A stretch of 64,000 bases of DNA, taken from Apostichopus japonicus (lineage: Eukaryota; Echinodermata; Holothuroidea; Aspidochirotida; Stichopodidae). The notes under the pieces are model-generated. The model saw only the letters and a program-made list of their open reading frames with translations, made no database searches and was not told where the DNA came from. Each line of letters opens with the position of its first letter. Position 1 is the first letter of the stretch. The DNA lies in the NCBI RefSeq assembly GCF_037975245.1, contig NC_092574.1:15265713-15329712 (forward strand). Direction: 5' to 3'. Below are positions 10,846-50,905 of this stretch, piece by piece. Made by a program: the position numbers and the translations under genes.

Positions 10846-11041
10846 AGCTTTTAAGAAAAGTCACCCAAGAAGAACCTAGGCACGTAAAACCAAACAACCG
10901 AACTGACTGATCCGCTCTTAACACCAGTCCCCTTGCATAAAGACTGTGACTTTGTGACGCATCATCAGGTGTGTATCACAGTTCCCCTACACTGGGAACA
11001 TAATGATGCACATGATCTTAGCCAAGAGGCAGAAAAGTGAT
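10846..11041 (-). mobile_element. U2 snRNA-headed SINE, copy 1
   Basis: Read on the minus strand from 11041, the element starts ATCACTTTTCTGCCTCTTGG, then CTAAGATCATGTG. This is a diverged copy of the 5' end of U2 snRNA (ATCGCTTCTCGGCCTTTTGG, CTAAGATCAAGTG). The remaining 150 bp is unlike U2 and matches the element at 49680-49864 through to its end (shared TTTGGTTTTACGTGCC and TTGGGTGACTTTTCTTAAAA). Target-site duplications are not clear at this copy. Confidence 0.82.
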
Positions 11042-26700: not shown

Positions 26701-29700
26701 TAACCTTTAATTTATTTATAATCTAACTGTGCACTTTCTCTCGATCTCGTCATTAACCACCAAATATTATCTTCTCTTTTTAACAGCATACGGTACATAC
26801 TGTGCATGACTGAATACCTTATAATTTACATGGAAAATACTTACCGTAACTTCAATGTTTAATCATACTGTATGTAATTTAAGAAAATAAAACCTCCGCT
26901 CAGCGGAAACCCAGGAAGTGTGTCGAAAGGATCAGTGAATACTAAACGAACAACAAATTTTAACCAACAGGTTAACATGCTGTGTCAAATCTAGTGAAAC
27001 CGGTTAAAAAATAGTGCAGTGAAATTGCCGGAAGGAATTAAGTTCTGTTCAATAAATGTGCTCTCCCGTGGCTTAAATACCATCTATCTTACATTATTTG
27101 AATATTGTTATCTATATTTAGACATGTTTGTCTAGTTTTCAAGAAAGGTCAAAAAGTGCAGTCTTGCGATGAATATTTCTTTTCATTCAACTTGACATTT
27201 AAAATAAAGCATCTCCTGTGCGCTGTTTAAAGTAGCATTAATGCAAATACATGAACTTTGCTTGCTCCATAGCCCAGAATCCCAAGAAAATAAATTTCTT
27301 TTTTAAGGCTATTCACATTTTCTTATGTAAATAATAACTCAGTATCCTGCACTGTACATTATAACCGAAAAAAAAAGAAAAAAAGAAAGATTGAATTTGT
27401 AGTTTGAATCATTTTTGCATGTTGGGCTTGAATGTGATAAATGTTTGTAACCAACAGCTTAATAGCTTTCAGTAAAGTGTTCAAGTTTTGCGTCATGAAA
27501 TGTCATGTCATCAAAATCAAATGTTTCTATCTGATGCTACAGTTTTCTTTCTACAGTACATTACTGTATGTGCGACTACCATCGACATTATACCGTAATG
27601 TACATTTCATGTTTGTTAGAATCAAATGGAATGTATAGTTTAATAATAATACTTGTTAAAATTGGCCTCTTTTTAGTCAAAAAGAAAGAAGAAGAAAAAA
27701 AAAGAGTACATTAATGCTACTTTGATCTGCCCGGTGACACTTTGTAATAACTGAACCAATTTGTAGACATATATTATGTAGTTGTAGTATTGTTTGTAGT
27801 ATTTTGTATTAATTTATTTACATGCAATAATAGTGGCAGCATTTAGTAAATTTATGACATGTATCTAGTAATATATTGTCATTGACAGTCATTGTCCACT
27901 TCCGTCACCTTTTTGTCTGGCTTAGAGTGCATTACCGTAAAGGGGAATCTATATGTTCTTCCCTTACTGTATGTGTTTGCATCAGCGCTACCTGTCAACA
28001 GGAAGGCACAGTTCTCACTCTAATTTGTTATGCATCAATTGTTGATGCTAAGACAGAAGACCTTTGCTACAAATGGAGTCAGTTATTACAAAATAGCACT
28101 TTAACCTTATTACAAAATGCATCAATTGGTTATTACAAAAAGTATTGATCAGTTAAGACAAGATGCATCCGTGCAGGGAACTGAGATTTCAGCAGAACTT
28201 TGTAATCACACTTATTTGCAATCATACTTATTTGCAATTTGATCAATATATTTATACTAATATGTCCTATGCATTCCTCCCTGCTGTGTTCTCAGTGTAA
28301 CTACTGAACCATGAAAGTGATGCCAGACTGTATGGAACAATGTTCTTGAATGTTTTAAGTACTACATTGCTGCTAGTCAAGATTTCATTTGCTTCTAATA
28401 AGAACATGAGATAACTGTTATTACTTTCCCCCTCTTTATTTCAAATTCAGTTAGTGATAGCCGAGGAAAATTTGCTGGCTCAACATCCATGGCTGACTCT
28501 GACCCAGAGGTGGGGGTAGGGGATGCTGAGGGTACCTTCGATTTTGATGTCACCAAAGATCACGGTCTGAGCAGCGATAGTGAAGAGGAAGAGGAGGATG
28601 AAGACACAGGTGAGACGGTGTTGTGACTTGTAATGTCAGAACATGAGCACATCTTGTGGTGCACAATGAATACAGTGATTTCTGTGACTTTTAAAATGAC
28701 TTAGTTTTGTTGTCATAACAACATGACAATGATATTGCAGTCTACAAAATTAAATATAAAAGGAATATGGAATACAGCAAATGTACGAAAACAACACTTC
28801 TATCACATTGTTTCCGATTCACTTGAACATATTTATACTAATCTGTCAATAGATCAAGTTTAGAATTTCAGGTAGGTGAGGAATACCAGCTGAGTCCAGA
28901 TGGGGGGGGGGGGGAGGCGGGCGTTATAACTACAAATGGAGGGTATTATATGACAAATGTATCTTTCAAAAACTCTGTTTCCGTCAAGTGTGGCTAGAAA
29001 TAGAACTCAGTAGAACTGGCAAATTTTGGCCAAAAGAATTCTAAAAATGATTTACATGGAAGCCTCAGATGCAACAATTACTCACTGCAGAGAATACAAA
29101 CACCTATTTTGCATAGGGTACTGTACATCCAATCTTAAAAATGCACACTGAGTACTGAAAGCTGTCAAATTTATGCTGTAGTCTGCTCCACGAATGATAT
29201 CATATTATAATCTACATTTGAAAGAAAAACTGCAGTATGCCATCACATTTTGAATGCCTGTCAGCAAGCAGAAGTGAAAAGACCCACTGGATTTATAAGT
29301 GTACGATACGATATGAGGGAGAGCCTGATTGATCCGGGGCTTGGAGGGGATCCCTGTTCGATCCCTAGGAGGAGATCCCCGTTTGATCCCTAGGAGGGGA
29401 TCCATTGGGGGAAAAAACCCAGATATGGAATAGTAGATGCAGTGAACAACTGTTTAGTTTGGATATTTAATCTTTCTTCTTTAAGGTGGGTCATATACGA
29501 TATGAGGGAGAGCCTGATTGATCCAGGGCTTGGAGGGGATCCCCGTTTGATCCCTAGGAGGGGATCCCCGTTTGATCCCTAGGAGGGGATCCCCGTTTGA
29601 TCCCTAGGAGGGGATCCATTGGGGGAAAAAACCCAGATATGGAATAGTAGATGCAGTGAACAACTGTTTAGTTTGGATGTTTAATCTTTCTTCTTTAAGG

Positions 29701-44700: not shown

Positions 44701-46068
44701 GTTAATGTTTTAATGATGTTGAGTATAGAGCATAGAGCAGAGTGCCTTTGATGTACTTAGTTTTATCATACTCAGATTCTGTCAACATCCATTGTTTATG
44801 AAATGTTTGTTGGCAAGTATTAAAATGAGACGAAAGAGGCTCTTATCTTATATGTTGTGTAAACTTGACAGTATAAAATTGAATGTGTAAAAGTAAGTGG
44901 GCCTGACGTTTTGTTCCTAGCAGGAACTGCTCAATGAAGAAGATCCTGCTTGGGTCGGAACGTCAGGCCAGCTTACTTTTACACATTCTCTTACACAGGC
45001 TCTCGAATGGATAAGCAGTTTGCTAACAGTTTTTGCATTAGTTTTATTTAGTATAAAATTGAATTAGAATCTGTGTTCTCATATGTACAAAAGTATCACT
45101 AATGTAACGTAATGTATAGTATGAATGTATAGCTGGATTAATCAGTCTGAAGGTGGGATCTAAGGAATTCCATATTTTCTTTATCTTAATCTAGGTTGCA
45201 AAGTAAGTCATTCACTTCCTCGCAGCCAGCTGCTCTCATCAAGAGGTCACCTCGATGGACCTTACCAAAGTCTAAACCAAGCTCTCCGAGTCCCACCGCA
45301 GTTGAGAGGAAGGTCACAACACCCACTCCTGCGAGTTCATTCCAAGCAGAGGTGAAGGTCACAAGTAGCTCTTCGAGTCCCACTGCAGTTGAGAGGAAGG
45401 TCACAACACCCACTCCTGCGAGTTCATTCCAAGCGGAGAAGAAGGATACAAGCAGATCTTCGAGTCCCACTGCAGTTGAGAGGAAGGTCACAACACCCAC
45501 TCCTGCGAGTTCATTCCAAGCGGAGAAGAAGGATACAAGCAGATCTTCGACTCCCACCGCAGTTGAGAGGAAGGTCACAACACTCACTCCTGCAAGTTCA
45601 TTCCAAGCGGAGAAGAAGGATACAAGCAGATCTTCGAGTCCCACCGCAGTTGAGAGGAAGGTCACAACACCCACTCCTGCAAGTTCATTCCAAGCGGAGA
45701 AGAAGATCACAAGCCCCAACGAGAGCAAAGTAGAAAAGGTGAAAGAAGACACCCCTGAGATAAAGCCAACACCAAGAAGACAGACTCCTCCAGTGAAGGT
45801 TAAAACAGTGAATGTATCAATTAGAAGCCCACCTCCAAAGGAGACCACCCCACCGCCAACTCTCAGGAGGGAGAGCAAGGATGAAAACTCCAACAATAAG
45901 AGCATAGGTAGATTGCCTTAGTTTATAGCTCAAAATGGAAGTAAAAAACTCAACTCAGTGATATTGCATGTTATGAGTAGTGGGAGAGAAGGTATCAGCA
46001 AGAACTTTATAGTTGAATATATAGATAGATATATATATAGATATATATATTTATATATAGATATATAT

Positions 46069-49359: not shown

Positions 49360-50905
49360 TAGTTGGATCTGAATATTCAGTTTAAGCTGTAATCTATTCT
49401 TTCAAGCTGTTAGAGAGATTCCATGGTAATATTCTCATATAAAATGAAATATGCTGTTTTCTTTCAAAAGATTCTAAATATTCATTGAACCAAATGGTTT
49501 CCAATATTCAGTGAGGCTGTATTCTTTCAGAGAGCTCTGAATATTCAGTTCAGATGTAGTTCTATCCTTTCAAAGTGTTACAAAGGTTCAGTGGTTGTAT
49601 TTCTTGTAATTAGTATTTAATATGCTAAATTTCTTTCATAGAGGAGTCTACAGATTCATTGAGCAAAATGCGTATCAGTATCGCTTCTCAGTGTTTTGGC
49701 TTAGATCATTATGTTCCCCTTCTTGGGGAATCGTGACACACACCTGACGATGATCACACAGTCACAGTCTCTATGCAAAGAGACTGGGGTTGAGATCAGA
49801 TCAGTCGTTTGGTAGTTTGGTTTTACGTGCCCAGGTTCTTTCTTGGGTGACTTTTCTTAAAATTATGCTTATCAGCATACAGTGAGGCTGTATTCTTTTA
49901 CATTATTACTACAACTAGGATTAATTATAAGGACATAGAAAGTCCATCTCCATAAACAAAAGAAGATACTTCCTATGCATATATCCTTCACAAATATGAA
50001 CATTACCTATGGATATTACCTATCGAGGGTGATTCTTTCGGACGGCTCTGAATATTCAGTTCAGTTGTACTACTACCCTTTTAAGCTGTTACAAAGATTC
50101 GATAGTTATATTCTTTCAATGAATGTTTAATTTGCTAATTTCTTTCAAAGGGTCTGAATATTCATTGTGCCAAATGCTTATCAACACATGTTGAGGCTGT
50201 ATTCTTTCAGACGGCTCTGAATATTCAGTTCAGTTGTAATTCTCTCCTTTCAAACTGTTACAAAGATTTATTGGTTGTATTCTTTCAATGCATGTTTAAT
50301 TTGCTAATTTCTTTCATAAGGTCTGAATATTCAGTGTCCCAAATGCTTATCAACACATGTTGAGGCTGTATTCTTTCAGAGGGCTCTGAATATTCAGTTC
50401 TGTTGTTATTCTAGCCTTTCAAGCTGTTACAAAGATTCAATGGTTGTATTCTTTCAATGAATGTTTAATTTGCTAATTTCTTTCATTGTTTCTTAATATT
50501 CATTGTGCCAAGTGCTTATCAACACACGTTGAGGCTGTATTCTTTCAGTGGCTCTGAATATTCAGTTCTGTTGTAACTCTAGCCTTTCAAAATGTTACAA
50601 ATATTCAATGGTTGTATTCTTTCAATGAATGTTAAGTTGCTAATTTCTTTCATAGTATCTGAATAGTCATCGTGCCAAATGCTTTTCAACACACGTTGAG
50701 GCTGTATGCTTTCAGAGGGCTCTGAATATTCAGTTCAGTTGTAAATCTATCCTTTCAAACTGTTACACTGATTCAATGGTTGTATTCTTTGAAAGGCCTC
50801 TGAATATTCAAAAAGCTGTTTTCTCTCAAAGTGTTTGACTATTAGTTCAGGTTGTATTCTAATTAAAATGTCGCTAACATTCAGTGAGGCTGTATCCTTT
50901 TGGAA
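49360..50905. repeat. Satellite, about 168-bp unit, eight to nine copies
   Basis: The landmark GAGGCTGTATTCTTTCAG lies at 49512, 49883, (50024 diverged), 50193, 50362, 50531, 50698 and 50885. Spacing is 167-169 bp in the regular core. Each unit also carries CTCTGAATATTCAGTTC, CTGTTACAAAGATTC and CAAATGCTTATCAACACA. The 371-bp gap between 49512 and 49883 is one unit plus a 196-bp insertion. Confidence 0.93.
49680..49864 (+). mobile_element. U2 snRNA-headed SINE, copy 2, inserted in the satellite
   Basis: Starts ATCGCTTCTCAGTGTTTTGG, CTTAGATCA, close to the U2 snRNA 5' end, then the same non-U2 body as the copy at 10846-11041, ending TTGGGTGACTTTTCTTAAAA. Flanked by ATGCGTATCAG (49668-49678) and ATGCTTATCAG (49865-49875), an 11-bp target duplication with one difference. 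Removing the insert plus one duplicate restores a satellite unit of about 175 bp, which independently confirms the boundaries. Confidence 0.9.

What the first reader, a model, noticed from the sequence alone, without database searches (positions are those of the whole stretch)
49680..49864. U2 snRNA-headed SINE with a target duplication proven by the satellite it landed in
The element begins with a near copy of the U2 snRNA 5' end (ATCGCTTCTCAGTG, TTTTGGCTTAGATCA) followed by an unrelated body of about 150 bp. It has an 11-bp flanking duplication and interrupts a 168-bp tandem repeat so cleanly that subtracting it restores one unit. snRNA-headed SINEs are known in few lineages (crocodilian SINEU families are the case I recall). 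A family in an echinoderm-like genome would be unusual and possibly undescribed.
Basis: partly seen in the sequence, partly recalled or inferred. Interest (0 to 1): 0.72.

Follow-up and report, generated by a model that had tools for sequence, protein, structure and literature searches.

The report
U2-headed SINE that inhabits U2 genes
A short repeat scattered through this animal genome begins with a piece of the U2 spliceosomal RNA, and copies of it also sit inside the animal's U2 genes, which suggests that it borrows the U2 promoter and carries the piece of gene upstream of its landing site away as its own head.

Summary
Window 49680-49862 is an old copy of a dispersed SINE whose head is U2 snRNA nt 1-45; a second, inverted copy lies at 11041-10849. 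The window's genome holds 1,305 matches to the head (U2 genes included) and 1,487 to the body at up to 3 mismatches in 35; reversed controls give 0. The consensus head equals host U2 45/45, and dispersed copies have 8-19 bp duplications (18 of 32 loci).

The unexpected part is a U2 gene array on contig C16. Six of its 84 U2 3' halves are interrupted by this SINE at nt 38/39, the site known for the LINEs Keno and Utopia. In the stretch read, upstream sequence is unchanged, and one U2-resident copy is identical over 191/191 to two dispersed copies. A ~5.3-kb L1/Tx1-type LINE occupies the same site in a neighbouring unit; 15 of the 84 have LINE-like 3' junctions.

Best reading: the SINE inserts into U2 genes, is transcribed from their promoter, so acquires U2 nt 1-45 as head, and scatters when the RNA is retrotransposed elsewhere. 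Transcription and partner LINE are inferred; the two LINE tails read share only 6-7 terminal bases with the SINE. New variant of a known kind.

The parts
49680..49708 (+). U2 snRNA-derived head (U2 nt 1-29; about nt 30-38 lost in this copy)
   Evidence: 25 of 29 identical to host U2; alignment
49709..49862 (+). SINE body and 3' end; near its start TGTTC (49712-49716) probably remains from U2 nt 41-45
   Evidence: whole element 85.4% to family consensus positions 1-191; a 35-nt body segment has 1,487 matches in the genome
49668..49678 (+). left target-site duplication ATGCGTATCAG
49865..49875 (+). right target-site duplication ATGCTTATCAG
10849..11041 (-). second copy of the same SINE, U2 head at 11041-11009
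   Evidence: 84% to consensus positions 1-191; 25 of 29 to host U2
50025..50790 (.). 169-bp satellite array (4.6 copies) next to the insertion; the insertion lies in a diverged unit upstream
   Evidence: alignment

Best explanation
The element is a SINE of about 191-195 nt made of U2 snRNA nt 1-45 plus a ~150-nt structured non-coding body ending in AAAAAGTA. [quoted passage not shown] Such an interrupted U2 gene is then transcribed by RNA polymerase II from the U2 promoter (inferred), so the RNA begins with U2 nt 1-45. The head is therefore the flank of the element's own target and not a separately fused RNA gene (inferred). A LINE reverse transcriptase, most likely an L1/Tx1-type Keno-like LINE found in the same U2 array, copies the RNA by target-primed reverse transcription (inferred). 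It does so back into U2 genes, where the U2 head may help re-form the 5' junction by homology (inferred, by recalled analogy with R2), or at unrelated sites with 8-19 bp duplications (shown), giving the dispersed, promoterless copies such as the one in the window.
For: Consensus head equals host U2 nt 1-45 at 45/45, including this host's T at nt 30 where the Rfam consensus has A. In the 4,630 bp of C16 array read, 3 U2 units are intact, 3 carry the SINE and 1 a LINE; 400 bp upstream of each SINE and LINE unit has 0 mismatches to an intact unit, and 420 bp of the six 3' halves differ by at most 1. Six exact SINE-tail/U2-nt-39 junctions on C16, where 84 U2 3' halves were found. Two different 5' junctions (full after nt 45; truncated after nt 52) with one 3' junction imply at least two insertions at the same nucleotide. 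One U2-resident copy is identical 191/191 to dispersed L029 and L030 and 1 nt from copies at six more loci. 22 of 41 dispersed elements compared start exactly at U2 +1 (21 of 40 without one copy counted twice). TSDs entered in 18 of 32 dispersed loci, 8-19 bp, median 13. T-runs of 4, 4 and 5; best match to full A or B box consensus has 3 mismatches (a 9-nt B core has 2). SINE-SINE junctions at the same U2 site: L037, C3, C6, C13; a dispersed array on C5 carries U2 nt 39-50 between units. LINE in the same site with 12-bp duplication, ORF1 with zinc knuckle, ORF2 with APE and RT, best solved match L1 ORF2p.
Against: No transcript was examined. Both LINE 3' tails read (171 and 152 nt) match the SINE only in the last 6-7 bases, no better than shuffles otherwise. 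Of the more than a thousand body matches only six were found at the C16 U2 site, and by eye only one or two of 18 dispersed sites look like it. RNA from a U2-resident copy should run on into U2 nt 39 onward, yet the dispersed copies read stop at AAAAAGTA; the pattern search found SINE tail plus a long U2 3' stretch outside C16 once, on C20, which I could not read. U2-resident copies could be sinks and not sources. The six array copies may partly stem from array homogenisation. The C5 junction could also come from about two substitutions and one insertion. The loci compared are biased to close relatives of the window copy.
Confidence: 0.7

Rival explanations
1. An ordinary snRNA-headed SINE in the manner of crocodilian SINEU: the U2 head was fused once (template switch), dispersed copies are themselves transcribed, and the U2-array copies are occasional insertions by a LINE that likes U2 genes, with no role as sources.
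For: Dispersed copies with ordinary TSDs are the rule in the loci read, and head and body matches far outnumber the six U2-site copies. Identity between resident and dispersed copies does not give direction.
Against: Where a TSD abuts the head, no U2 upstream sequence is carried along; no convincing Pol III boxes and internal T-runs; the head ends close to the site where the element inserts (nt 38/39), a coincidence under this reading.
Confidence: 0.2
2. The SINE is driven by a LINE not seen here; the Keno-like LINE in the U2 array is only a neighbour using the same site.
For: LINE tails L052 and L053 do not match the SINE tail beyond the terminal 6-7 nt. Five C16 inserts of 5,035-5,037 bp have unread 3' ends.
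Against: Same 3' nucleotide junction and similar duplications (12 nt for the LINE, 14 for the truncated SINE) at the U2 site; shared AAAGTA end.
Confidence: 0.35
3. Chimeric U2 retropseudogene, a one-off fusion during reverse transcription.
For: Such chimeras are known for L1 and small RNAs (recalled).
Against: Over a thousand head and body matches on both strands of many contigs, and one shared head-body junction in the loci read that keep the head.
Confidence: 0.01
4. The body is a remnant or internally deleted derivative of a U2-targeting LINE, like the short internally deleted R2 derivatives (recalled).
For: Shared target and terminal AAAGTA.
Against: No significant similarity between the SINE consensus and the 4.1 kb of LINE read or the two LINE 3' ends; about 1 kb of that LINE is unread.
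Confidence: 0.07

Closest known systems
SINEU (crocodilian SINEs with U1/U2 snRNA heads; Kojima 2015, paper not held, content recalled; class named in passages of PMC4455052 and PMC8010984)
   Same: Short dispersed retroposon with the 5' end of U2 snRNA as head; recalled to be tied to a Tx1-type LINE.
   Different: Different genome; body homology untestable here; copies lodged in the U2 genes themselves at the LINE target site, which I do not recall for SINEU.
Keno (APE-encoding Tx1-type LINE in U2 genes; PMC4640811 section 6 read, PMC6136364 passages)
   Same: Occupies U2 at the same site, downstream U2 flank as for Utopia (nt 39 on); the LINE in this array has APE and an L1-like RT.
   Different: Keno is an autonomous LINE; the SINE is 191 nt and non-coding, and is found mostly outside U2.
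Utopia (U2-targeting LINE with restriction-like endonuclease; PMC4640811 abstract and sections 5, 6, 8, 11 read)
   Same: Same 3' insertion nucleotide in U2; some families also insert outside U2.
   Different: The LINE read here encodes an APE and its best solved matches are L1, not R2-type; its C-terminal part was not read.
R2 and its non-autonomous derivatives in 28S genes (recalled)
   Same: Transcribed with the host RNA gene they sit in; upstream target sequence in the RNA helps integration.
   Different: Different gene, different endonuclease; this SINE shows no similarity to the LINE read and has a large dispersed population.

Membership tests
SINE (general) | Short non-coding element, many dispersed copies with target-site duplications | tested here: met
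   1,305 head (U2 genes included) and 1,487 body matches; TSD 8-19 bp in 18 of 32 loci
SINE (general) | Internal Pol III promoter in the head | tested here: not met
   Best full A and B box matches have 3 mismatches, 9-nt B core 2; T-runs at 15, 150, 180. snRNA-headed SINEs are, as recalled, an exception in this feature
SINE (general) | 3' tail shared with a partner LINE | tested here: inconclusive
   Not found for the two U2-site LINE tails read; other LINEs not read
SINEU (snRNA-headed SINEs) | Head derived from U1 or U2 snRNA | tested here: met
   45/45 to host U2 nt 1-45
SINEU (snRNA-headed SINEs) | Body homologous to crocodilian SINEU families | not testable with these tools
   No repeat library or SINEU sequence available; paper not held
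Keno (for the LINE in the array) | APE endonuclease plus RT | tested here: met
   PF03372 3e-19, PF00078 2e-38; L1 ORF2p 9.7e-79
Keno (for the LINE in the array) | Insertion in U2 with downstream flank from nt 39 | tested here: met
   3' end at C16:31125715 followed by TCTGTTC; 5' junction after nt 50; the ~1 kb between the two read parts was not fetched
Keno (for the LINE in the array) | RT falls in the Tx1 clade | not tested
   No Tx1 reference sequences available; only L1-like by solved structures
Utopia (for the LINE in the array) | Restriction-like endonuclease | tested here: inconclusive
   An APE at the N-terminus of ORF2 speaks against it, but the C-terminal part, where such an endonuclease would lie, was not read

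The most novel reading that the evidence does not exclude
The head of an snRNA-headed SINE is not a fused RNA gene but the upstream flank of its own target. The element lives inside U2 genes, takes over their promoter, and its thousand or more dispersed copies are off-target offspring of a few U2-resident masters. If so, the crocodilian U1/U2-headed SINEs may have arisen in the same way, and repeated head acquisition would mean repeated landing in snRNA genes.
Probability: 0.55. Interest if true: 0.85.

Novelty: new variant of a known kind. Interest (0 to 1): 0.75.

Why it matters
snRNA genes have external promoters, so, as far as I recall, it is unclear how SINEs headed by U1 or U2 are transcribed once they leave the gene. 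Here a SINE copy identical to dispersed ones sits in a U2 gene at a known LINE target site, under unaltered upstream sequence. That makes the question directly testable in a living animal and offers a general route by which a site-specific retroposon can turn its target's promoter and 5' flank into its own head. It also means that part of this animal's U2 array is interrupted by retroposons, while 55 of the 84 C16 units counted are uninterrupted.

Tried and rejected
Rfam over the window: no U2 call, probably because little more than 29 nt of U2 remain in the window copy. tRNA scan: none. Phage collection: no match. Internal Pol III boxes: none convincing. Shared LINE tail: not found beyond 6-7 terminal bases; a common terminal hairpin of LINE and SINE was considered and dropped because L053 folds otherwise. 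SINE as a deleted LINE: no similarity to the part read. The library lacks the SINEU paper, and Repbase and SINEBase could not be searched. Never answered: counts of U2 upstream sequence plus head outside the arrays (last tried) and of LINE tails outside U2 (last tried).

The TSD list is selected: 18 of 32 dispersed loci (L001-L026, L029, L030, L036, L037, L046, window 11041; L001 is the window copy at 49680). The other 14 were left out: weak or short candidates in L002, L010 and window 11041, duplications seen by eye in L003 (dimer) and L025, nothing clear in the rest. The A at -1 in 18 of 18 is partly a product of how I placed the boundary. The 30 loci are the best of 40 scored out of 2,336 candidates, hence biased to close relatives; the 20 x 10 kb sample is systematic and held one young locus (a dimer, L037) and old relatives in L036 and L046. 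In one search ten of the 30 loci were aligned in reverse orientation; handles them in the right one.

Full report
At 49680-49708 the window carries a near copy of the U2 5' end: 25 of 29 bases identical to the host's own U2, against at most 19 in 30 shuffled windows. The element runs to about 49862 and is flanked by ATGCGTATCAG (49668-49678) and ATGCTTATCAG (49865-49875), 10 of 11 alike; leaving out the insert and one duplicate gives a satellite unit that aligns at 76-78% to four neighbours without a gap at the site. A second copy of the same element, inverted, lies at 11041-10849.

It is a family. The window belongs to an unnamed 671.6-Mb genome in 35 contigs. A search with the window copy gave 2,336 first-look candidates, of which 40 were scored, giving 58 matches. 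In the 30 loci fetched plus the second window copy, those that keep the head share one head-body junction; some are 5'-truncated, and ten were aligned in reverse orientation by that script (right orientation). A 35-nt head pattern (U2 nt 11-45 of this host) at up to 3 mismatches has 1,305 matches (647 and 658 on the two strands), U2 genes included, and a 35-nt body pattern has 1,487 (774 and 713); the reversed-pattern controls give 0 (only the first 100 places are listed in each). At this stringency copies as old as those in the window can be missed, so the family is probably larger. In 20 systematic 10-kb samples one young locus (a dimer) and old relatives in two others were found. A young copy folds far better than shuffles (z = -4.5, 0 of 200).

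Dispersed copies look like target-primed retroposons. Of 41 dispersed elements compared, 22 start exactly at U2 nt 1 (21 of 40 without one copy counted twice) and others within a few bases or truncated. Full young copies end in AAAAAGTA. In 18 of 32 loci a duplication of 8-19 bp (median 13) was entered; sites tend to have a purine at -3 (16 of 18) and a pyrimidine at +1 (15 of 18), as does the U2 site GTA/T, but they are otherwise diverse.

The head matches this host's U2. Rfam's U2 model finds intact U2 genes at 184.8 bits in loci L027 and L028, and these carry T at nt 30 where the Rfam consensus has A; the SINE consensus has the same T and equals host U2 nt 1-45 at 45 of 45.

The key finding lies outside the window. 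L027 and L028 come from a tandem U2 array on contig C16 with 645-bp units. In the 4,630 bp read there are seven units: three intact, three interrupted by the SINE, one by a LINE. In the SINE units U2 nt 1-45 (two full SINEs) or nt 1-52 (one 5'-truncated SINE) is followed by the body, and after AAAAAGTA the U2 gene goes on from nt 39. Upstream sequence of the three SINE units and the LINE unit is identical to an intact unit over 400 of 400 bases. Over the whole array there are 84 U2 3' halves on C16 (one with a mismatch) and 4 on C15. By model and spacing, 55 on C16 are uninterrupted (42 by the U2 model, 13 by spacing alone), 6 carry the SINE (exact tail-U2 junctions), 15 carry a junction ending in GAAAAGTA or AGAAAGTA, 12 of them with 4,975-5,314 bp extra, and 8 are other, five of them with 5,035-5,037 bp of unread insert. 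Nt 38/39 is the published insertion site of Utopia, whose downstream U2 flank starts at nt 39 and is identical to that of Keno (PMC4640811, sections 5, 6, 8 and 11 read; PMC6136364, passages, counts 37 nt).

A LINE sits at the same site. The seventh unit holds an element of about 5.3 kb (C16:31131016 down to 31125715, the middle ~1 kb unread) after U2 nt 1-50, so its duplication is 12 bp. The 4.1 kb read contain an ORF1 of 496 aa with a zinc knuckle and an ORF2 open for 817 aa with an APE endonuclease (PF03372) and reverse transcriptase (PF00078). Its best solved relatives are L1 ORF2 proteins (9.7e-79), far ahead of R2 proteins (2.3e-20). This fits Keno better than Utopia; RT phylogeny could not be run, and the end of ORF2 was not read. 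Its 3' end and that of a second LINE type share TTGAATAAACTTGAAAG(A)AAAGTA with each other but only the last six or seven bases with the SINE; the rest scores no better than shuffles. The partner is therefore plausible but unproven.

Resident and dispersed copies are of one stock. A full U2-resident SINE is identical over 191 of 191 bases to dispersed copies L029 and L030 and one base from copies at six other loci (L012, L018-L022); L029, L030 and five of the six have their own duplications, while the duplication listed for L021 flanks a neighbouring unit. Some dispersed copies bear the mark of the U2 site: tandem pairs joined as AAAAAGTA/TCTGTTC (L037 within a single outer duplication, C3, C6, C13), and an array on C5 in which U2 nt 39-50, of which nt 46-50 are not in the SINE consensus, lies between two units.

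Mechanism. U2 genes are driven from upstream (established knowledge), and the SINE has no convincing Pol III boxes and three T-runs that would hinder Pol III. A U2-resident copy has the upstream sequence; dispersed copies whose duplication abuts the head do not. The simplest account is that resident copies are the sources: Pol II transcribes U2 nt 1-45 plus the body, and a LINE enzyme copies this RNA into U2 genes or elsewhere. Shown: residence at nt 38/39, intact upstream sequence in the stretch read, identity of resident and dispersed copies, frequent start at U2 +1, TSDs. Inferred: transcription, direction from resident to dispersed, the partner LINE, the role of the head in re-insertion. 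Against it stand the unshared tails, the lack of RNA data, the rarity of U2-like dispersed sites and the absence of U2 downstream sequence in the dispersed copies read.

Compared with what is known, the element works like an snRNA-headed SINE (SINEU) combined with the promoter borrowing of R2 in rRNA genes; SINEU and R2 statements are recalled, since the SINEU paper is not held. I saw no SINE inside U2 genes in the listings of searches.

Noticed in passing
G000 C16:31051650, 31083233, 31097672, 31109802, 31118062: Five U2 3' halves with 5,035-5,037 bp of extra sequence and a 3' junction not matching the SINE or LINE junction pattern; probably another U2-site element or a spacer insertion.
   Followed up: partly
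G000 C16:31041024 and 31046337: Two U2 genes intact by the U2 model with exactly 4,668 bp extra before the next unit, so probably a duplicated spacer insertion.
   Followed up: no
G000 C20:14906438-14906486: SINE tail followed by U2 nt 39 onward outside the C16 array; a U2 copy elsewhere or a read-through retrocopy.
   Followed up: no
L021 1290-1373 and 1501-1584, L003 1695-1771: Rfam's U2 model scores these dispersed SINE copies above its gathering cut-off (48.6-53.3 bits against 46), so automatic annotation may call them U2 genes.
   Followed up: no
L036 6165-6798: Old run of U2-headed units, some with U2 nt 1-31 followed by a different body; hints at older or parallel U2-headed families.
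   Followed up: partly
L017 2953-2931, minus strand: U2 nt 1-23 (one mismatch) followed by sequence unlike U2 or the SINE, a bare U2 head.
   Followed up: no
G000 C2:21947645-21948933: Head-to-tail run of nine SINE pieces, the first full, the rest 5'-truncated at various points.
   Followed up: no
L020, C11:20354631-20355219: Trimer of the SINE with its short duplication between units, as from unequal exchange between duplications.
   Followed up: partly
window 45283-45714 and 29343-29617: Clean tandem repeats: 87-bp unit x5 at 95%, and two short arrays of a 25-bp unit (GGAGGGGATCCCCGTTTGATCCCTA or near it); nature not examined.
   Followed up: no
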